From the NCBI RefSeq assembly GCF_003050835.1, contig NZ_QAOJ01000001.1:186001-250000 (forward strand): 64,000 nucleotides of DNA. The letters are read 5' to 3'. This DNA is from Pseudomonas sp. GV071 (lineage in GTDB: Bacteria > Pseudomonadota > Gammaproteobacteria > Pseudomonadales > Pseudomonadaceae). Both the position numbers and the translations under genes were made by a program. The notes beneath the pieces are model-generated. The model had not been told where the DNA came from, did no database searches, and was given only the letters and a program-made list of their open reading frames with translations. This document shows positions 45,912 to 56,357 of the stretch, in pieces (within the stretch, counting starts at the first letter, position 1; every line of letters begins with the position of its first letter).

Positions 45912-48569
45912 ATGCGCACCGAACAACCGAAGATGATTTACCTGAAGGACTACCAGGCGCCGGATTACCTGATTGACGAGACCCATCTGACTTTCGAATT
46001 GTTCGAGGACCACACCCTGGTCCACGCGCAGCTGGTGATGCGTCGCAACCCGGCGCACGGCAGCGGTTTGCCGGCGTTGGTGCTGGATGGCCAGGAACTG
46101 GAGCTGGTGTCGCTGAGCCTGGACGGCAAGGCCCTGGAGGAGGGTGACTATCAGCTCACCGACAGCCACCTGACCCTGCAACCGGCCGCCGATACCTTCG
46201 TGATCGACAGCAGCGTGCGCATCCACCCGGAAAGCAACACTGCGCTGGAAGGCTTGTACAAGTCTGGCAGCATGTTCTGCACCCAGTGCGAGGCCGAGGG
46301 TTTCCGCAAGATCACCTACTACCTCGACCGCCCGGACGTGATGAGCAAGTTCACCACCACCCTCAGCGCCGAGCAGCACAAGTACCCGGTGCTTCTGTCC
46401 AACGGCAACCCGATTGCCAGCGGCCCGGAAGACGGCGGTCGTCATTGGGCGACCTGGGAAGACCCGTTCATGAAACCGGCCTACCTGTTTGCCCTGGTAG
46501 CCGGTGACCTGTGGGCCATCGAAGACACCTTCGACACCATGAGCAAGCGCGAAGTGGCGCTGCGTATTTATGTCGAGCCGGAAAACATCGACAAATGCCA
46601 GCACGCCATGGACAGCCTGAAAAAATCCATGCGCTGGGATGAAGAGGTGTACGGCCGCGAATACGATCTGGATATTTTCATGATCGTCGCCGTCAACGAC
46701 TTCAACATGGGCGCCATGGAAAACAAGGGCCTGAACATCTTCAACTCCAGCTGCGTACTGGCCAAGGCCGACACCGCCACCGACGCTGCGCACCAGCGCG
46801 TTGAAGGGGTGGTAGCGCACGAGTACTTCCACAACTGGTCGGGCAACCGCGTGACCTGCCGCGACTGGTTCCAGCTGTCGCTCAAAGAAGGTTTCACCGT
46901 GTACCGCGACGCCGAGTTCTCGGCGGACATGAATTCGCGCACAGTCAAACGCATCGAAGACGTGGCCTACCTGCGCACCCACCAGTTCGCCGAAGACGCC
47001 GGCCCCATGGCTCACGCCGTGCGCCCGGACAGCTTTATCGAGATCTCCAACTTCTACACCCTGACCGTGTACGAAAAAGGCTCGGAAGTGGTGCGTATGC
47101 TCCACACCCTGTTGGGCGGCGAAGGCTTCCGCAAAGGCAGCGACCTGTACTTCGAGCGCCACGACGGCCAGGCCGTGACCTGCGATGACTTCATCAAGGC
47201 CATGGAAGATGCCAACGGCGCCGACTTCACCCAGTTCAAACGCTGGTACAGCCAGGCCGGCACGCCGCGCCTGCAAGTGAGCGAGGCGTATGACGCTGCC
47301 GCGAAAACCTACACGCTGACGTTCCGTCAGAGCTGCCCGCCGACCCCGGGGCAGACCGAGAAGCTGCCATTCGTGATTCCGGTGGAGCTGGGCTTGCTCG
47401 GCGCCAAAGGCCAGGCATTGACCCTGAAGCTGGCGGGTGAGGGCGCTGCTCGCGGTGAGTCCACTGTGATTGCGGTCACCGAAGCCGAGCAGAGCTTCAC
47501 CTTCGTCGAGGTGGCCGAGCAGCCACTGCCGTCGTTGCTGCGTGGCCTGTCGGCGCCGGTGAAGCTGAGCTTCCCCTACAACCGCGACCAACTGATGTTT
47601 TTGATGCAGCACGACGCTGACGGCTTCAACCGGTGGGAAGCCGGCCAGCAATTGTCGGTACAGGTGCTGCAAGAGCTGATTGGCCACTACCAGCGCGGCG
47701 AAACGCTGGTGCTGGACAAGCGTCTGGTCAGCGCCTTCGAAACCTTGCTGACTGATGACAGCCTGGATCAGGCCATGGTCGCGGAAATGCTCTCGCTGCC
47801 GAGCGAGGCCTACCTCACCGAAATAAGTGAAGTAGCTGAAGTCGACGCCATCCACGCCGCCCGTGAATTCGTCCGTAAAGAGCTGGCCGACGCCCTGTAT
47901 GCGCCGCTGTGGCAGCGTTATCAGCAGAACCGCGAGGTGTCTCGTAACAGTGAGTACGTGGCCCAGGCCGAGCATTTCGCCCGCCGCAGCCTGCAGAACA
48001 TCGCGCTCTCATACTTAATGCTGAGTGGCAAACCGGAAGTACTGGCAGCCTGCCTGGAGCAGTACGACGCCTGTGACAACATGACCGAACGCCTCACCGC
48101 GCTGGCCGTGTTGGTCAATTCCGCCTTCGAAACGGAGAAGGCCAAAGCCCTGGCGGCGTTTGCCGAACACTTCAAAGACAACCCGCTAGTCATGGATCAA
48201 TGGTTTAGCGTGCAGGCGGCGAGCGCTCTACCTGGCGGCCTGGAGCGGGTCAAGGTGCTGATGGAACACCCGGCCTTCACCCTGAAAAACCCCAACAAGG
48301 TGCGGGCACTTATCGGTGCTTTCGCCGGTCAGAACCTGGTCAATTTCCACCGCGCCGATGGTTCGGGCTACCACTTCCTGGCGGATCTGGTGATTACCCT
48401 GAATGGCTTCAACCCGCAGATCGCTTCGCGGCAATTGGCGCCATTGACCCGCTGGCGCAAGTACGACGCCAGCCGTCAGGCGCTGATGAAGGCCGAGCTA
48501 GAGCGGATTCTCGCCTCTGGTGAGCTGTCTTCCGACGTCTACGAAGTGGTCAGCAAGAGCCTGGCGTAA
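45912..48569 (+). CDS. pepN: aminopeptidase N
   Basis: A zinc M1 aminopeptidase that removes N-terminal residues from peptides in the cytoplasm. The 885-residue product has the exopeptidase motif GAMEN at 267-271 and the zinc motif HEYFH at 303-307 with the third ligand Glu326 (HEXXH-x18-E). The C-terminal half is the long helical domain. Start at the ATG at 45912, with AAGGGAA upstream. A strong terminator follows. Confidence 0.98.
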   Translation: MRTEQPKMIYLKDYQAPDYLIDETHLTFELFEDHTLVHAQLVMRRNPAHGSGLPALVLDGQELELVSLSLDGKALEEGDYQLTDSHLTLQPAADTFVIDSSVRIHPESNTALEGLYKSGSMFCTQCEAEGFRKITYYLDRPDVMSKFTTTLSAEQHKYPVLLSNGNPIASGPEDGGRHWATWEDPFMKPAYLFALVAGDLWAIEDTFDTMSKREVALRIYVEPENIDKCQHAMDSLKKSMRWDEEVYGREYDLDIFMIVAVNDFNMGAMENKGLNIFNSSCVLAKADTATDAAHQRVEGVVAHEYFHNWSGNRVTCRDWFQLSLKEGFTVYRDAEFSADMNSRTVKRIEDVAYLRTHQFAEDAGPMAHAVRPDSFIEISNFYTLTVYEKGSEVVRMLHTLLGGEGFRKGSDLYFERHDGQAVTCDDFIKAMEDANGADFTQFKRWYSQAGTPRLQVSEAYDAAAKTYTLTFRQSCPPTPGQTEKLPFVIPVELGLLGAKGQALTLKLAGEGAARGESTVIAVTEAEQSFTFVEVAEQPLPSLLRGLSAPVKLSFPYNRDQLMFLMQHDADGFNRWEAGQQLSVQVLQELIGHYQRGETLVLDKRLVSAFETLLTDDSLDQAMVAEMLSLPSEAYLTEISEVAEVDAIHAAREFVRKELADALYAPLWQRYQQNREVSRNSEYVAQAEHFARRSLQNIALSYLMLSGKPEVLAACLEQYDACDNMTERLTALAVLVNSAFETEKAKALAAFAEHFKDNPLVMDQWFSVQAASALPGGLERVKVLMEHPAFTLKNPNKVRALIGAFAGQNLVNFHRADGSGYHFLADLVITLNGFNPQIASRQLAPLTRWRKYDASRQALMKAELERILASGELSSDVYEVVSKSLA

Positions 48570-49098: not shown

Positions 49099-51051
49099 AT
49101 GGAATTCAAGTCCCGTAGTCCTATGTTGCGTTTCGCACCGTCCAAGGCTGGTTTCGCCTTCGCCGGTCTCCTGCCGTTGCTGGTTGCTGTACAAGCTCAA
49201 GCGGTGGAATTCAGCTTTGCCGACGACGAAGTCACCGGTTCCATCGACACCACCGTGTCCTACGGCCAACTGTGGCGTGTACAGGGTCGTGACAAGAACA
49301 ACGACGACATCAATACCAACGACGGCAACCGCAACTTCGACACCGGTCTGGTTTCCGAGGTGTACAAGATCACTTCCGACCTGGAAGCGACCTACAAGAA
49401 CTACGGTCTGTTCGTGCGCGGTACCGCTTTCTATGACACTCAGATCATGGACAAGCGCACCGACTACGGCGACAACAACAGCCCGTCTCAGCCAAGCCAG
49501 AACTACCCGAACAACGACAGCCTGACTTACGACGCTCGCCACAAGGCTGGTCGTGATGCTCAGATTCTCGATGCCTACGTTTATGGCAACTGGGACGTAG
49601 CCGATATGCCGGTTACCGCCCGTCTGGGTAACCAGGTGTTCAACTGGGGTGAAGGCCTGTTCTACCGTGGTGGCGTCAACACCACCAACCCGGTCGACGC
49701 TGCGAAATTCCGTCTGCCAGGTTCTGAATTGAAAGAAGTGTTGGTGCCGGTCGAGGCGCTGAGCTTCAACTTGGGCCTGACCGACAACCTGTCGATGGAA
49801 ACCTTCTACCAGTTCAACTGGAAAGAGTCGGCCATCGACCCGGCTGGTACTTACTTCTCCGAGACCGACCTGTTTGCTGAAGGTGGTAATACTGCCTACT
49901 CCACCCAGCCAAAACTGCAACCGCTTGCTGCGCTGTACTCCGGCCTGAGTCGTCTGGGCACTGGTGGCCTGAATGGCGGTCGGACAATCGACAGCAACGG
50001 CAATATCCAGGTTGCGAAAATTGGGTCTGATATCAACGCGAAGAACGACGGTCAGTACGGCGTTAACTTCAAATACATCGCTGAAGAATTGAACTCCACC
50101 GAGTTCGGAGCTTACTTCGTTAACTATCACTCTAAAGAGCCGACCATCGCGGCCAACCTGGGTGATTACGACGGTATTACTAGCTTGACTACTCTCGCCG
50201 GCGCCGCCTGTGTGGCTCAAGGGCTGGCTGGGGCGTGTGCGAACCCTGCTGTGCTGGCGAACTTCGCTACCGCCGCCGGTGGCTTGGCGACTCTCGATGT
50301 GGCCAACCAAGTCAACGCCCAGCGTGAGTATTCCGAAGACATCCGTATGTACGGTTTCAGCTTCAACACCACCCTTGGCAACGCCTCGGTGTTTGGTGAG
50401 CTGGCCTACCGTCCGAACCTTCCAATCGGCATCGCAACCACCAACGACCTGTTGGGTGATCTGCTGCTGCAAGCGCCGGCATTGGCAACTCGTCAGACCG
50501 TCAACATTGGCGGCCAGGCCGTTCACCTGGGCGACGAAATCCACAACGTGACGCGTGTCGAGGCGTACAACACCTCCCTGGGTACCATTTACAACTTCGG
50601 TCCAGTTGCTGGTTTCGACTCGCTGTTCGGTGTTGCCGAACTGGCGTCCGAGCACCTGCGTGGCGACGATCTGAAGTACACCGCCTATGACGGCACCACC
50701 CGTTACTACTCCGGCCGCGGCAACAACTCTTACGTGAGTGGCGGCGACCGTGACGACCAGGTCAACAAGAACGCCTACGGCTACACCCTGGTGCTCTCGG
50801 GTACCTGGAACGACGTATACGCTGGCGTGAACGTTTCCCCGTACGTGGTCTACAAGGACGACTTCGAGGGTAACTCCTATCAGACCGGTAACTTCATCGA
50901 AGGTCGTAAGGCTTACACCCTGGGCGTCAAAGCCAGCTACCTGAACAGCCTGGAAGGCGAACTGGCCTACACCGAGTTCTACGGTGCCGGCGAGAACAAC
51001 TCCAGCCGTGACCGCGACAACATCGGCGTCAACGTTAAGTACTCGTTCTAA
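49099..51051 (+). CDS. DUF1302 family predicted outer-membrane beta-barrel protein
   Basis: A 650-residue precursor. The signal peptide is about 1-35 (AFAGLLPLLVAVQAQA), cut before VEFSF. The mature part is rich in alternating aromatic/polar strands, and the chain ends GVNVKYSF, with the terminal Phe that marks outer-membrane barrels for BAM insertion. The family is commonly found beside DUF1329 genes, and the next gene is DUF1329. Channel or adsorption function for a hydrophobic compound is inferred, not shown. The ATG at 49099 is preceded by CACGGAGTAAAG. Confidence 0.92.
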   Translation: MEFKSRSPMLRFAPSKAGFAFAGLLPLLVAVQAQAVEFSFADDEVTGSIDTTVSYGQLWRVQGRDKNNDDINTNDGNRNFDTGLVSEVYKITSDLEATYKNYGLFVRGTAFYDTQIMDKRTDYGDNNSPSQPSQNYPNNDSLTYDARHKAGRDAQILDAYVYGNWDVADMPVTARLGNQVFNWGEGLFYRGGVNTTNPVDAAKFRLPGSELKEVLVPVEALSFNLGLTDNLSMETFYQFNWKESAIDPAGTYFSETDLFAEGGNTAYSTQPKLQPLAALYSGLSRLGTGGLNGGRTIDSNGNIQVAKIGSDINAKNDGQYGVNFKYIAEELNSTEFGAYFVNYHSKEPTIAANLGDYDGITSLTTLAGAACVAQGLAGACANPAVLANFATAAGGLATLDVANQVNAQREYSEDIRMYGFSFNTTLGNASVFGELAYRPNLPIGIATTNDLLGDLLLQAPALATRQTVNIGGQAVHLGDEIHNVTRVEAYNTSLGTIYNFGPVAGFDSLFGVAELASEHLRGDDLKYTAYDGTTRYYSGRGNNSYVSGGDRDDQVNKNAYGYTLVLSGTWNDVYAGVNVSPYVVYKDDFEGNSYQTGNFIEGRKAYTLGVKASYLNSLEGELAYTEFYGAGENNSSRDRDNIGVNVKYSF

Positions 51052-51118
51052 CACCCCTCTATAAAAGAAGCCGGGCGCCTACGGGCGCTCGGACGATGAT
51101 TGACCACGGAGAACTATG

Positions 51119-52489
51119 ATGCTGAAAAAGCACACGCTGATTAGCGCCGCGATCGCTCTGGCGTTGACCGCCGGTAGCGCGCTGGCAGCCGTTTCGCCTT
51201 CCGAAGCGGCCAAGCTGGGTACCACTCTGACGCCGTTCGGTGCTGAAAAAGCCGGTAACGCCGCCAATACCATTCCGGCTTGGACCGGTGGTATCACCAA
51301 GGCCCCGGCCGAGTATAAAACCCCTGGCCAGCACCACGTCGATCCGTTCCCGGGCGACAAGCCGCTGTTCACCATCACCAAAGCCAACCTGGACCAGTAC
51401 AAGGCCAACCTGACCCCGGGTCAGATCGCCCTGTTCAACGCCTACCCGGCGGACTACCAGTTGCCGGTGTACCAGACCCGTCGCTCCGGCTCCGCGCCGC
51501 AGTGGGTGTATGACAACACCGTGAAGAACGCCACCACCGCCAAACTGCTGGACGGCGGCAACGGCTTCGCTGACGCCTACGGCGGCGTGCCATTCCCGAT
51601 CCCGCAAAACGGCGTGGAAGCGGTTTGGAACCACATTGCTCGCTACCGGGGTACCTACATCGTGCGTCGCGCTTCGGAAGTAGCTGTACAGCGCAATGGC
51701 GACTACACCCTGGTGACCTCGCAGCAAGAAGCGATGTTCCGCTTCTACGACCCGAAAAGTAACTACTCGAACCTGAACAACATCCTGTTCTACTACCTGT
51801 CCTTCACCAAGAGCCCAGCCCGTCTGGCCGGCGGTGCAGTACTGGTACACGAGACCCTGGATCAGGTTAAAGAGCCGCGTCAGGCCTGGGGCTACAACGC
51901 CGGTCAGCGTCGCGTCCGTCGCGCGCCGAACCTGGCTTACGACACCCCGATCGCTGCCGCTGATGGCCTGCGCACTGCAGACGACACCGACATGTTCAAC
52001 GGCTCGCCAGATCGTTATGACTGGAAGCTGGTCGGCAAGAAAGAGATCTACATTCCGTACAACAACTACAAGGTCAGCAGCCCCGACGTGAAATACGCCG
52101 ACCTGCTGAAAGTGGGTCACCTGAACCCGGCCTACACCCGCTACGAACTGCACCGTGTGTGGGTTGTAGAAGGCACCTTGAAAGCCGGCGCTCGTCACAT
52201 CTACTCCAAGCGTGTGCTGTTCCTCGACGAGGACAGCTGGCAAGCAGCAGAAGTTGACCAGTACGACGGCCGTGGCGAACTGTGGCGCGTGTCCCTGGCG
52301 TACCTGAAAAACTTCTACGAGCTGCCGACCACCTGGTCTGCACTGGACGTGTTCCACGACCTGCAAGCCCGTCGTTACCACGTACAGAACCTGGACAACG
52401 AAGAGCCGACCACCATCGACTTCAGCCAGCCGATTCCAGACGATGGCTACTTCAAGCCAGCCGCTCTGCGTCGTCGCGGTACTCGTTGA
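51119..52489 (+). CDS. DUF1329 family periplasmic protein (LolA/LolB-like)
   Basis: A 456-residue precursor with a clear signal peptide (MLKKHTLISAAIALALTAGS, cut about residue 24 before AVSPSEA). The family is often annotated as outer-membrane lipoprotein-sorting protein because its fold is thought to be like LolA/LolB, a half-barrel that carries lipids. Family marks: GGVPFPIPQNGVEAVWNHIA and the TYIYSKRVLFLDEDSW-like KRVLFLDEDSWQAAEVDQYD. There is no lipobox Cys, so it should be soluble. GGAG at 51108 fits the ATG at 51119 better than the one at 51116. It is probably in one operon with DUF1302, 67 nt before it. Confidence 0.93.
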   Translation: MLKKHTLISAAIALALTAGSALAAVSPSEAAKLGTTLTPFGAEKAGNAANTIPAWTGGITKAPAEYKTPGQHHVDPFPGDKPLFTITKANLDQYKANLTPGQIALFNAYPADYQLPVYQTRRSGSAPQWVYDNTVKNATTAKLLDGGNGFADAYGGVPFPIPQNGVEAVWNHIARYRGTYIVRRASEVAVQRNGDYTLVTSQQEAMFRFYDPKSNYSNLNNILFYYLSFTKSPARLAGGAVLVHETLDQVKEPRQAWGYNAGQRRVRRAPNLAYDTPIAAADGLRTADDTDMFNGSPDRYDWKLVGKKEIYIPYNNYKVSSPDVKYADLLKVGHLNPAYTRYELHRVWVVEGTLKAGARHIYSKRVLFLDEDSWQAAEVDQYDGRGELWRVSLAYLKNFYELPTTWSALDVFHDLQARRYHVQNLDNEEPTTIDFSQPIPDDGYFKPAALRRRGTR

Positions 52490-52500
52490 TGGGTTGAACT

Positions 52501-52574
52501 GTTGGGCTTCGCCTGCGGCTCAACCCAACCTACGCGTCCTGGGGTAGGTTGGGTTGAGCGAAGCGAAGCCCAAC
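52501..52574. repeat. large inverted repeat (GTTGGGCTTCG family) after DUF1329
   Basis: GTTGGGCTTCG at 52501 is the inverse of CGAAGCCCAAC ending at 52574, and CAACCCAACCTACG faces GTAGGTTGGGTTG inside, so 74 bp fold into one hairpin. Repeats of this type are common between genes in gammaproteobacteria. Confidence 0.88.
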
Positions 52575-52660
52575 ACGGGCCGGCCCAACGCAATCGACAA
52601 ACATACGCTGCGGTCGAGGTTGACCATAGGCAACACAACGCCAGTTGTGTAGTGTTCGGC

Positions 52661-52688
52661 AAAGGCCGCTACAGTCGTAGCGGCCTTT
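52661..52688 (+). terminator. perfect 12-bp hairpin before the YCF48 gene
   Basis: AAAGGCCGCTAC-AGTC-GTAGCGGCCTTT. A strong stem, flanked by A on one side and T on the other, so it could stop transcription both ways. With the repeat at 52501 it splits the four-gene locus into two likely units. The 372-bp gap 52490-52861 holds no other gene. Confidence 0.75.
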
Positions 52689-52861
52689 GTGCATCAGGAG
52701 TATCTATTCCGGTGCATCAGAGGTGCCTATAACGTGTCAATCACGCGGGTTTGCCTTAACAAAACATAACGTCACGTTGATTGTCAGACCTTTCGAAAGC
52801 TGGATAGGATAGGCGGCCTGCTAAAAGGCTGATATCCCATAACAATAAAGGGGAAAGGTGT

Positions 52862-53956
52862 ATGAGTGAGCCCGTCATGCGGCGCACCCAGTCTGGTGAA
52901 GCTACGAAGTTCCGCACACCAGCGTTCCGCTTCCACTCGCCGCTGGCTAACGTGCTTTCGCTGTGTAGTGTGTTGTCCGTTCTGAGTTTCGTGGCACCGC
53001 TTCAGGTGCAAGCGGCGACCGATGCGTCGGCCACCGTTTACTCGATCGAATCCGCCAAGGCTGCAGACTCTCTGTTGCTCGACATCGACAACGCCGGCAA
53101 GCGCCTGGTGGCTGTAGGTGATCGTGGCCACATTCTGTATTCCGACGACGAAGGCAAATCCTGGACCCAGGCCAAAGTGCCGACCCGGATGATGCTCACG
53201 GCGGTGGCCTTCGGTGACGACAAGCACGGCTGGGCGGTTGGTCACGATGCACTGATCCTCGCCACTGAAGATGGTGGCAGCACCTGGACTCAACAGTTCA
53301 GTGACCAGGAGCGGGAGGAGGGCGCGCCTTTCCTCGACGTCTGGTTCAAAGATGATTCCACCGGTTTTGCCGTAGGTGCTTATGGTGCGCTGTTCGCCAC
53401 CACCGATGGCGGCAAGAACTGGGAAGATGCCGGTGACCGTCTCGACAACCCCGACGGCTACCACCTCAATGCCATTACCGAAGTGAAAGGCTCCGGCCTT
53501 TTCGTGGTCGGTGAAATGGGCAGCATGTTCAGAAGCTCGGACGATGGCGAAACCTGGGAAACCATCAAGGGCCCTTACGAGGGTTCGTTGTTCGGCGTCC
53601 TCGGCACCAACCAGCCGGGCACCGTTCTGGCCTACGGCCTGCGCGGCAACCTGTTCCGCTCTACCGATTTCGGTACCACCTGGACCGCCATCAAAGTCAA
53701 GTCGCCACGCGGCAAACTCGACTTCGGTCTGTCCGGTGGCGCACTGCTCAAAGATGGCTCGATTGTCATCGTCGGGCACGGCGGCAGCGTACTGAAAAGC
53801 ACCGATAACGGCCTGACCTTCAGCCTGATCAACCGTCCCGATCGCCTGTCCTTGTCCGGCGTTGCGGGTGACGACAAAGGTGATCTGGTCCTGGTCGGCC
53901 AAGGTGGCGTCCATGTCACTTCGCCTTCCGGCGAAGACGCTAGCCCAAAACAATAA
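52862..53956 (+). CDS. YCF48/BNR-repeat beta-propeller protein (HCF136-like)
   Basis: A 364-residue precursor. An N-terminal hydrophobic stretch (about 29-52, ending VQAATDA) is a signal peptide with a long n-region. The mature part is a propeller of repeated blades with the pattern DGG..W / S-D-D-G-W (YSDDEGKSW, TEDGGSTW, TTDGGKNW, SSDDGETW, STDFGTTW, STDNGLTF). Related plant/cyanobacterial HCF136/YCF48 helps assemble photosystem II, so here it may be an assembly or docking factor. The RND gene follows after 25 nt, and co-transcription is likely. The ATG at 52862 has GGGGAAAGG upstream. Confidence 0.92.
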   Translation: MSEPVMRRTQSGEATKFRTPAFRFHSPLANVLSLCSVLSVLSFVAPLQVQAATDASATVYSIESAKAADSLLLDIDNAGKRLVAVGDRGHILYSDDEGKSWTQAKVPTRMMLTAVAFGDDKHGWAVGHDALILATEDGGSTWTQQFSDQEREEGAPFLDVWFKDDSTGFAVGAYGALFATTDGGKNWEDAGDRLDNPDGYHLNAITEVKGSGLFVVGEMGSMFRSSDDGETWETIKGPYEGSLFGVLGTNQPGTVLAYGLRGNLFRSTDFGTTWTAIKVKSPRGKLDFGLSGGALLKDGSIVIVGHGGSVLKSTDNGLTFSLINRPDRLSLSGVAGDDKGDLVLVGQGGVHVTSPSGEDASPKQ

Positions 53957-53981
53957 GCCGTGGCTTTGAGGTATGAGTACG

Positions 53982-56357
53982 ATGAGTAACCATCATCAGG
54001 ATAAGGGCTCCCTTCTCGAGCGCCTGATCTTCAACAACCGGCCGACAGTGATCCTCATCTGCCTGCTGGTCAGCGTGTTCCTGTTCTACCAAGCGTTGCA
54101 GGTGCGTCCGTCCACCAGCTTCGAAAAGATGATTCCGCTGCAGCATCCGTTCATTCAGAAGATGCTCGAGCACCGTAATGATCTGGCCAACCTGGGCAAC
54201 ACCGTGCGTATCTCGGTGGAAGCCAAAGATGGCGATATCTTCAGCAAGGAATACATGGAAACCCTGCGTCAGGTGAACGACGAGGTGTTCTACATTCCAG
54301 GCGTCGACCGTTCCGGTCTGAAGTCGCTGTGGAGCCCGAGCGTTCGCTGGACCGAAGTGACCGAAGAAGGTTTTGCCGGCGGTGAAGTAATCCCGCAGAC
54401 CTACGACGGCTCGCCCGACAGTCTCGACGAACTGCGCAACAACGTGCTCAAGTCGGGCCAGATCGGCCGACTGGTCGCCAACAACTTCAAGTCGAGCATC
54501 GTCGACGTGCCGTTGCTGGAGTCCTACCCGGACCCGCAAGACCAAGGCACCTTGCTGAAACTCGACTACCGCCAGTTCTCCCATGAACTGGAAGAGAAGA
54601 TCCGCGACAAGTACGAAGCACAGAACCCCAATGTGGAAATTCACATTGTCGGCTTTGCCAAGAAGGTCGGTGACCTGATCGATGGTCTGGTAATGGTGGT
54701 AGCGTTCTTTGCCATCGCATTCCTGATCACCCTGGTGCTGCTGATGTGGTTCACCCGCTGCATCCGCTCCACCGTTGCCGTGCTGTTCACCACCCTGGTG
54801 GCGGTGGTCTGGCAACTGGGCCTGATGCACACCGTGGGCTTTGGCTTGGACCCGTACTCGATGCTGGTGCCATTCCTGATCTTCGCCATCGGTATTTCCC
54901 ACGGCGTACAGAAAATCAACGGTATCGCCCTGCAATCGAGTGAAGCGGACAGCTCGCTGACCGCCGCGCGCCTGACCTTCCGCCAACTGTTCCTGCCGGG
55001 CGCCATCGCGATTCTGGCCGACGCCGTGGGCTTTATCACCCTGTTGATCATCGACATCGGCGTGATCCGCGAGCTGGCCATCGGTGCTTCGATTGGTGTG
55101 GGCGTGATCGTCTTCACCAACCTGATCCTGCTGCCAGTTGCCATCTCCTATGTCGGCATCAGCAAGAAGGCCATCGAGCGCAGCAAGAAAGACGCCGTGC
55201 GTGAACACCCGTTCTGGCGCCTGCTGTCGAACTTCGCTCACCCGGTGGTGGCACCGATCTCGGTGGTCATTGCCCTGGCAGCCTTCGGTGGCGGCCTGTG
55301 GTACGGCCACGGGCTGAAAATCGGTGACCTCGATCAGGGTGCACCGGAGCTGCGTCCGGACTCGCGCTACAACCAGGACAACGCCTTTATCATCAACAAC
55401 TACTCGACCAGTTCGGATGTGTTGGTGGTAATGGTCAAGAGCAAACCGGAAGGCTGCTCGATCCATGAAACCATGCAGCCGATCGACGAGCTGATGTGGA
55501 CCATGAGCAACACCGAGGGCGTGCAATCGGCCATTTCCCTGGTCACTGTGTCCAAGCAGATGATCAAGGGCATGAACGAGGGCAACCTGAAGTGGGAAAC
55601 CCTGTCGCGCAACAAAGACGTGCTGAACAACTCCATCGCCCGTGCCGATGGCCTGTTCAACAACGACTGCTCGCTGGCCCCGGTGCTGGTGTTCCTCAAC
55701 GACCACAAAGCCGAGACCCTGGATCGCGCGGTCAATGCCGTGAAAGCCTTCGCCAAGGATCACGACACCGAGGACCTGCAGTTCCTGCTCGCCGCCGGTA
55801 ACGCCGGTATCGAAGCTGCGACCAACGAAGTGATCAAGGAAACCGAGTTCACCATCCTGATCTTGGTGTACATCTGCGTCGCCGCCATGTGCATGATCAC
55901 CTTCCGCTCGATTGCTGCGACCCTGTGTATCGTGCTGCCGCTGATCCTCACCTCGGTGTTGGGTAACGCGCTGATGACCTTCCTGGGCATCGGCGTGAAG
56001 GTGGCAACCCTGCCAGTGATCGCGCTGGGTGTAGGTATCGGGGTCGACTACGGCATCTACATCTACAGCCGTCTGGAAAGCTTCCTGCGTGCCGGCATGC
56101 CGCTGCAAGAGGCCTACTACCAGACCCTGAAGTCCACCGGTAAAGCGGTACTGTTCACCGGTCTGTGCCTGGCCATCGGCGTGTGCACCTGGATCTTCTC
56201 GGCGATCAAGTTCCAGGCCGACATGGGGCTGATGCTGACCTTCATGCTCCTCTGGAACATGTTTGGCGCCCTGTGGCTGCTGCCAGCACTGGCGCGCTTC
56301 CTGATCAAACCGGAGAAGTTGGCCGGCAAGGTCGGTGGTTCGCTGCTCGCGCACTAA
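53982..56357 (+). CDS. MMPL-type RND transporter
   Basis: A 791-residue inner-membrane protein with the two-fold RND plan. TM1 near 21-40 (VILICLLVSVFLFYQALQV) is followed by a periplasmic domain, five helices (about 228-385), TM7 near 425, a second periplasmic domain (about 450-625) and five more helices. The C-terminal half has the proton-relay motif GVGIGVDYGIYIY with Asp689-Tyr690; the equivalent N-terminal place reads FAIGISHGVQ, with Ser306-His307 instead. Such permeases often export or move lipids and other hydrophobic molecules. GAGG at 53968 suits the ATG at 53982 (10 nt) better than that at 53973 (1 nt). Confidence 0.94.
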   Translation: MSNHHQDKGSLLERLIFNNRPTVILICLLVSVFLFYQALQVRPSTSFEKMIPLQHPFIQKMLEHRNDLANLGNTVRISVEAKDGDIFSKEYMETLRQVNDEVFYIPGVDRSGLKSLWSPSVRWTEVTEEGFAGGEVIPQTYDGSPDSLDELRNNVLKSGQIGRLVANNFKSSIVDVPLLESYPDPQDQGTLLKLDYRQFSHELEEKIRDKYEAQNPNVEIHIVGFAKKVGDLIDGLVMVVAFFAIAFLITLVLLMWFTRCIRSTVAVLFTTLVAVVWQLGLMHTVGFGLDPYSMLVPFLIFAIGISHGVQKINGIALQSSEADSSLTAARLTFRQLFLPGAIAILADAVGFITLLIIDIGVIRELAIGASIGVGVIVFTNLILLPVAISYVGISKKAIERSKKDAVREHPFWRLLSNFAHPVVAPISVVIALAAFGGGLWYGHGLKIGDLDQGAPELRPDSRYNQDNAFIINNYSTSSDVLVVMVKSKPEGCSIHETMQPIDELMWTMSNTEGVQSAISLVTVSKQMIKGMNEGNLKWETLSRNKDVLNNSIARADGLFNNDCSLAPVLVFLNDHKAETLDRAVNAVKAFAKDHDTEDLQFLLAAGNAGIEAATNEVIKETEFTILILVYICVAAMCMITFRSIAATLCIVLPLILTSVLGNALMTFLGIGVKVATLPVIALGVGIGVDYGIYIYSRLESFLRAGMPLQEAYYQTLKSTGKAVLFTGLCLAIGVCTWIFSAIKFQADMGLMLTFMLLWNMFGALWLLPALARFLIKPEKLAGKVGGSLLAH

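What the first reader, a model, noticed from the sequence alone, without database searches (positions are those of the whole stretch)
49099..56357. Four-gene trans-envelope locus: DUF1302 barrel, DUF1329 carrier, YCF48 propeller, MMPL permease
Seen: four adjacent same-strand genes that code for an outer-membrane-type barrel (signal peptide, terminal Phe), a periplasmic DUF1329 protein without lipobox, an exported BNR propeller with six DGG/DDG..W blades, and an RND/MMPL permease. Known: MMPL proteins move lipids and hydrophobic compounds, and DUF1329 is regarded as LolA/LolB-like. Inferred: the set forms a path inner membrane - periplasmic carrier - outer membrane for a hydrophobic molecule, with the propeller as assembly or docking factor. 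No catabolic enzymes are in the locus, so the role may be in the envelope and not in growth on a substrate.
Basis: partly seen in the sequence, partly recalled or inferred. Interest (0 to 1): 0.8.

Follow-up and report, generated by a model that had tools for sequence, protein, structure and literature searches.

The report
Shared engine for greasy-molecule uptake
This stretch of a Pseudomonas-type genome codes for an outer-membrane barrel, a periplasmic carrier, a propeller protein and a membrane pump; in related genomes the propeller and pump often sit alone, far from several barrel-carrier pairs, so one pump unit likely serves them all and would bring water-hating food molecules such as fatty acids into the cell.

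Summary
The four genes are real: DUF1302 barrel (A), DUF1329 carrier (B), YCF48-type propeller (C), MMPL/RND pump (D). The kind is known: AmeABCD of Castellaniella (PMC6394551) and P. putida PP_0765/0766 with PP_2018/2019 (PMC10866462). New here: the set is two modules. Of 68 Pseudomonas loci with enough upstream sequence, 53 have CD without AB and 14 have AB in front of C. A block in front of C is conserved in 76 of 80 loci. The window's genome has 10 B and 9 A but 3 D. In 148 family genomes strong B and D occur in the same 123, with B > D in 116; in 299 phylum genomes in the same 34, 22 outside the family. Seven of 20 chosen genomes have no B within 10 kb of a D. A widespread AB-only pair lies beside a long-chain acyl-CoA ligase. 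Best reading: CD is a motor shared in trans by many AB inlets for hydrophobic substrates, likely for uptake. Sharing is inferred from genomes and one published case, direction from precedents; nothing was tested at the bench.

The parts
49123..51051 (+). A: DUF1302 outer-membrane barrel, 642 aa (alternative upstream ATG at 49099)
   Evidence: Pfam PF06980 536 bits; model of mean pLDDT 69.4 resembles porins and AlgE only loosely
51116..52489 (+). B: DUF1329 periplasmic carrier, LolA-like domain at residues 162-455, 457 aa
52756..52771 (+). conserved box TTAACAAAACATAACG in front of C
   Evidence: found with up to 3 mismatches in 76 of 80 CD loci with or without AB; one exact site in the genome
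52781..52810 (+). promoter-like pair TTGTCA-18-TAGGAT of CD
   Evidence: position conserved in the alignment of 13 loci; the consensus scan alone is not above its shuffles (1 found, mean 2.2)
52862..53956 (+). C: YCF48/BNR-type propeller, six Asp boxes, 364 aa
   Evidence: Pfam PF14870 95.5 bits; repeats
53973..56357 (+). D: MMPL/RND pump, 794 aa; TM4 Ser309-His310, TM10 Asp692-Tyr693
   Evidence: Pfam PF03176 106.5 bits; alignments
45912..48569 (+). pepN, aminopeptidase N: the upstream neighbour of AB here and of CD in many relatives (context, not part of the system)
   Evidence: Pfam Peptidase_M1 and DUF3458; synteny

Best explanation
The locus joins two modules, a propeller-pump pair (CD) that likely acts as one inner-membrane motor for many barrel and carrier pairs (AB) coded elsewhere, and it would likely carry hydrophobic growth substrates such as fatty acids inwards. 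Shown: the four genes; CD as a unit that often stands without AB and has a conserved upstream block; many AB pairs without CD; B and D in the same genomes; a LolA-like fold for B. Inferred: A lets the molecule through the outer membrane, B ferries it across the periplasm, C docks B at D or assembles the complex, and D works on the proton gradient through Asp692. Inferred too: the AB pair in the window is one inlet among several of this genome; its own substrate is not known.
For: 53 of 68 loci have CD without AB; conserved block in front of C in 76 of 80; 10 B and 9 A against 3 D in the genome; strong B and D in the same 123 of 148 family genomes, B > D in 116, B < D in 0, and in the same 34 of 299 phylum genomes; in 20 genomes chosen for a lone CD, 58 unlinked B against 25 unlinked D and 7 genomes without any linked pair. 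Published: AB and CD of P. putida lie apart and share a Tween 20 phenotype. Uptake: ligase-A-B-MalT/LuxR order in 11 of 11 loci, ligase of a long-chain-fatty-acid subfamily.
Against: AmeABCD was read as an exporter: its mutant held slightly more Nile Red with CCCP and grew worse at high limonene even with acetate. Characterised relatives by sequence (MmpL, HpnN) are described as exporters. Two complete sets in this genome keep their own CD, and linked B and D pair 27 to 27, so sharing is not the rule for all types. Sampled genomes are related and the two samples overlap. DUF1302 is less strictly tied: three genomes have a strong A without B or D. No interaction of an AB-only B with the window's D was tested.
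Confidence: 0.5

Rival explanations
1. A self-contained four-part exporter, as proposed for AmeABCD: D takes hydrophobic toxic compounds from the inner membrane and B, C and A pass them out of the cell.
For: Same four families in the same order as AmeABCD, whose mutant is less tolerant to monoterpenes and holds slightly more Nile Red with CCCP (PMC6394551); MmpL and HpnN relatives.
Against: CD stands without AB in 53 of 68 loci. In the same paper real-time Nile Red efflux was almost identical in mutant and wild type. Growth on Tween 20 and adjacency to an acyl-CoA ligase are not explained by detoxification.
Confidence: 0.25
2. One reading: the set moves an envelope lipid between inner and outer membrane and is not for growth on a substrate.
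For: LolA-like fold of B; MMPL pumps that move lipids (recalled functions); no enzymes of a degradation pathway in the window's set.
Against: Neighbours of AB pairs elsewhere look catabolic in most cases; published phenotypes are growth defects on carbon sources.
Confidence: 0.13
3. AB pairs work without CD, as an outer-membrane pore with a periplasmic chaperone; B and D merely occur in the same kinds of bacteria.
For: 58 of 85 B lie more than 10 kb from any D in 20 chosen genomes; five stand-alone B genes in G225.
Against: No genome with a strong B lacks D in the 148 family genomes or the 299 phylum genomes (the samples overlap); P. putida AB and CD phenotypes correlate.
Confidence: 0.12

Closest known systems
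AmeABCD of Castellaniella defragrans 65Phen (PMC6394551; PMC4109377)
   Same: Same four families in the same order: DUF1302, DUF1329 of the LolA superfamily, COG4447 propeller, RND pump.
   Different: The paper says all members of the lineage lie in four-gene cassettes; here CD stands without AB in 53 of 68 loci and AB without CD in 6 pairs of this genome. Ame lies among monoterpene genes, the window set does not.
P. putida PP_0765/PP_0766 with PP_2018/PP_2019 (PMC10866462)
   Same: DUF1302 and DUF1329 genes apart from a periplasmic protein and pump, one shared Tween 20 phenotype; two genomes titled P. putida (L023, L068) have pepN and CD without AB.
   Different: Here an AB pair sits in front of CD. 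KT2440 itself was not among the sequences held, so orthology to its genes was not tested.
MmpL3, MmpL5 and HpnN (RND lipid or siderophore exporters)
   Same: Sequence matches of D, mostly to its C-terminal half.
   Different: MmpL3 and MmpL5 show Asp-Tyr in TM4 and TM10, HpnN Asp-Phe in TM4 only; D has Ser-His in TM4 and Asp-Tyr in TM10. D scores 64.8 bits against HpnN's cut-off of 751.85.
LolA-type carriers: LolA3 of P. gingivalis (9tp6) and the DUF1329 protein 4z48
   Different: B has a further confidently modelled N-terminal part (about residues 30-160) that these matches do not cover, and partners of other families.

Membership tests
AmeABCD-type RND system | DUF1302, DUF1329, YCF48/COG4447-type propeller and MMPL/RND genes together in the order A-B-C-D | tested here: met
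   Pfam matches over cut-off and gene order
AmeABCD-type RND system | pump of the HAE3 family | tested here: inconclusive
   TIGR00921 (HAE3) is the best NCBIfam match of D but at 140.5 bits, under its cut-off of 351.9
AmeABCD-type RND system | close sequence relation to the Ame proteins themselves | not tested
   The Ame sequences were not fetched
AmeABCD-type RND system | tolerance to monoterpenes | not testable with these tools
   needs a mutant
Tripartite HAE1 efflux pump | membrane fusion protein and TolC-type outer-membrane factor beside the pump | tested here: not met
   None of the four genes nor the four neighbours scanned matches such a family; the pump matches MMPL, with AcrB family only below its cut-off
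HpnN hopanoid transporter | score over the curated HpnN model | tested here: not met
   64.8 bits, cut-off 751.85
BstABC sterol transporter | score over the curated BstA model | tested here: not met
   35 bits, cut-off 1400
LolA superfamily (for B) | LolA-like fold | tested here: met
   PF17131 just over cut-off
LolA superfamily (for B) | binds a lipid or lipoprotein in the cavity | not testable with these tools
   model coordinates and docking were not available

The most novel reading that the evidence does not exclude
One RND pump with its propeller is a common inner-membrane engine for a whole set of exchangeable outer-membrane barrel and carrier pairs, powering uptake of fatty acids, terpenes, aromatics and other greasy foods: a TonB-like division of labour run by an RND protein that imports, with a reworked proton site (Ser-His in TM4, Asp-Tyr in TM10).
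Probability: 0.42. Interest if true: 0.85.

Novelty: new variant of a known kind. Interest (0 to 1): 0.62.

Why it matters
How hydrophobic carbon sources cross the Gram-negative envelope beyond FadL-type channels is poorly understood (general knowledge, not from a call). If one propeller-pump unit serves many inlets, two large families of unknown function (DUF1302, DUF1329) gain a common role, deleting one operon would switch off several transport routes at once, and an RND protein would be shown to work with many changeable partners and possibly inwards.

Tried and rejected
Rejected: the four genes as one fixed operon (CD without AB in 53 of 68 loci; B-C gap 372 bp against 64 for A-B and 16 for C-D in the window). 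Rejected: that the box in front of C marks a regulon shared with the AB pairs (no site with up to 3 mismatches in L010-L018 or L179-L198; one exact site and two with 2 mismatches in the genome). Led nowhere: sequence search of solved structures with B (best E 0.0018); paper searches for Tween 20 with RB-TnSeq and for LolA-like with RND (0 papers each). The barrel model has mean pLDDT 69.4; its matches to porins and AlgE (TM-score by query about 0.3-0.4) say only 'barrel', and no TolC-type match among the 50 rows shown excludes nothing. The hydropathy scan of D gave 20 overlapping windows and no clean count of segments. My TM10 pattern was too narrow (no match in 62 of 83 D); a looser one matched 36 of 36 D. 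My TM4 pattern missed 3 of 36 D and probably hit a wrong place in one; the three missed ones show Ser-His when aligned. Trees put the B of L147, which stands beside a window-like CD, next to the AB-only clade with 94/61 support only, so it is a hint and not used. Rows dropped: 12 of 80 loci with less than 4.5 kb upstream of C; three family genomes with only weak B hits (E 9e-5 to 7e-8) not counted as B carriers.
Full report
What is there. The window lies at G000:C1:186001-250000 of a 5.7 Mb genome. Its pump D is 79-90% identical to that of the 80 loci fetched from named genomes, 79 of which are titled Pseudomonas and one Pseudomonadaceae. Four + strand genes follow pepN: A, DUF1302, 49123-51051; B, DUF1329, 51116-52489; C, YCF48/BNR propeller, 52862-53956; D, MMPL/RND, 53973-56357. 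C has six Asp boxes, A ends in Phe, none has a lipobox-like motif in its first 60 residues.

The kind is known. C. defragrans AmeABCD (PMC6394551; I read parts 1-3 of 5) has the same four families in the same order. Its deletion lowers growth on non-functionalised monoterpenes but not on perillyl alcohol, aldehyde or acid; acetate restores growth up to 5 mM limonene but not above; with CCCP the mutant holds slightly more Nile Red, while real-time efflux is almost identical. The authors read it as an exporter. In P. putida, PP_0765 (DUF1302) and PP_0766 (DUF1329) were essential for Tween 20 use, and their phenotypes correlate with PP_2018 (periplasmic) and PP_2019 (pump); co-folding there gave a strong PP_2018-PP_2019 contact and weak contacts of PP_0766 with PP_2019 and PP_0765 (PMC10866462, section 12). 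From passages of other papers: an ameB insertion with decreased growth on monoterpenes and perillic acid (PMC4109377); a DUF1329, YCF48 and MMPL cluster in a benzene-degrading culture, and a cited Delftia DUF1329 deletion impaired on phenanthrene (PMC13101534); DUF1302 and DUF1329 proteins in Delftia nanopods (PMC3110197); RND, DUF1302 and DUF1329 genes listed among alkane-related genes of an oil isolate (PMC7145413); a DUF1302-DUF1329 pair in a phenol-hydroxylase cluster (PMC7012976).

One genome, unequal numbers. The window's genome holds 10 DUF1329 genes, 9 DUF1302 genes, three loci with a propeller match and three pumps of this lineage. Three sets are complete (window, C2:418-425 kb, C19:64-71 kb); six AB pairs and one lone B are without C or D. 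By identity six AB-only B proteins are nearer to the window's B (51-75%) than are the B of the two other complete sets (43 and 41%); the lone B is at 43%.

CD is a module of its own. Of the 80 named loci (the best 80 of at least 584), C is next to D in 80. Of the 68 with at least 4.5 kb upstream of C, 14 have AB, 1 has B alone, 53 have neither. pepN lies upstream in all 14 with AB and in 35 of the 53 without; in a few of these (L071, L072, L094) other genes lie between pepN and C. Median gaps are 23.5 bp for A-B and 197 bp for B-C (14 loci), 18 bp for C-D (80 loci). A box in front of C is present in 76 of 80 loci with or without AB, followed at a fixed place by TTGTCA-18-TAGGAT; by consensus alone that pair is not above chance, so the conservation carries the point. 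The box has one exact site in the genome. Outside the family C is next to D in 20 of 20 loci, with D before C in two (L142, L143) and the order C-D-A-B in L148.

B and D go together, but not one to one. In 148 genomes of the family, strong B hits occur in 123 and D in the same 123; three more have weak B hits only and no D. B outnumbers D in 116, equals it in 7 and is never fewer. At most 12 B and 6 D candidates per genome were scored; in the 96 genomes under both caps there are 499 B and 188 D. In 299 genomes of the phylum (E-value limits 1e-20 and 1e-60), B and D occur in the same 34, 22 of them outside the family (lists compared by eye). DUF1302 at 1e-10 was found in 85 of 299, all 34 among them; of the other 51, three are strong (G212, G294, G326, incomplete or fragmented genomes) and 48 weak, so A is less strictly tied. 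In 14 well-known control genomes B had one match, below its cut-off, and A none. Sampled genomes are related and the samples overlap, so I give counts and no probability.

Separate loci. For 20 named genomes that I chose because they have a CD locus without AB, all listed B and D are 85 B and 52 D. Within 10 kb they pair 27 to 27; outside, 58 B face 25 D, and 16 of 20 genomes have exactly one unlinked D (at least one is there by choice). Seven genomes have no linked pair; one of them, G452, is a metagenome assembly with one B at a contig end and one partial. In G444, one contig, B lie at 1.03 and 5.14 Mb and the only D at 2.56 Mb; in G445 B lie at 1.12, 1.35 and 5.37 Mb and D at 2.93 Mb.

What the AB pairs sit beside. 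In this genome: acyl-CoA ligase, thiolase and a MalT/LuxR regulator (L010); SDR, hydrolase and MalT/LuxR (L012); MFS, hydrolase and MalT/LuxR, with an aldehyde dehydrogenase further off (L014); MFS and LysR (L013); MFS on one side and alcohol, short-chain and aldehyde dehydrogenases from about 2 kb away on the other (L015); L011 shows no obvious catabolic neighbour. The complete set L018 lies among FAD monooxygenases, a dioxygenase-like protein and FAA hydrolase. I fetched the top-scoring B locus of 11 of the 20 genomes: in 11 of 11 the order ligase-A-B-MalT/LuxR is kept (L179-L189). In five second loci (L190-L194) SDR-A-B-MalT/LuxR is kept in five and the hydrolase in four (regulators there only 36-40% identical to those here). 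The ligase passes the cut-off of a long-chain-fatty-acid-CoA ligase subfamily (701.7 bits, cut-off 476). On a tree of 63 B proteins 20 AB-only B form one clade (100/100), and the label needs 4 changes against a shuffled mean of 18.9.

Structure and motif. B folds with mean pLDDT 88.2; residues 162-455 are LolA-like, with a further confident N-terminal part. In D, TM4 reads Ser-His where MmpL3 and MmpL5 have Asp-Tyr and HpnN Asp-Phe, while TM10 keeps Asp-Tyr, which HpnN lacks. Ser-His was found in 83 of 83 D of the first set and in 16 of 16 aligned from the wider set, three of them shared with the first. It may mean an altered proton path; this is inference.

Mechanism. I take CD as a motor shared by AB inlets (about 0.7) for hydrophobic growth substrates, more likely inwards than outwards (about 0.55 to 0.6); the whole picture gets 0.5. 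For uptake: loss of growth on carbon sources, adjacency to an acyl-CoA ligase that would trap imported fatty acids, activator-type regulators. Against: the limonene tolerance and dye accumulation of the Ame mutant, and the export role of characterised relatives. Complete sets that keep their own CD show that sharing is not universal.

What is new. Six paper searches that name these families or genes show 13 held papers with DUF1329; I read passages or sections of six and saw only the listing of the other seven. The P. putida case already has AB and CD acting from separate loci. None of the passages I read states a shared motor as a general rule, and PMC6394551 says that all members of the lineage are in four-gene cassettes.

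Noticed in passing
L091:3620-12385: P. alcaligenes NBRC 14159 has A-B-B-C-D with two different B genes in a row.
   Followed up: no
L202-L206 (G225): A genome outside the family has one D and six B; five B genes stand alone, with no A, C or D found in 17 kb around each.
   Followed up: partly
L016:9404-10747: A lone B gene without A in the window's own genome, among genes that look like housekeeping ones.
   Followed up: no
L074:7344-8699: P. congelans has B in front of C but no A was found.
   Followed up: no
L142, L143, L198: A divergent branch with the gene order B-A-D-C instead of A-B-C-D.
   Followed up: partly
window 52756-52771: The 16-base box in front of C is kept in 76 of 80 relatives but matches no regulator that I know, and its exact form occurs once in the genome.
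   Followed up: partly
window 53973-56357: D and HpnN look like mirror images at the proton site: D lacks the TM4 Asp and keeps that of TM10, HpnN the reverse.
   Followed up: no
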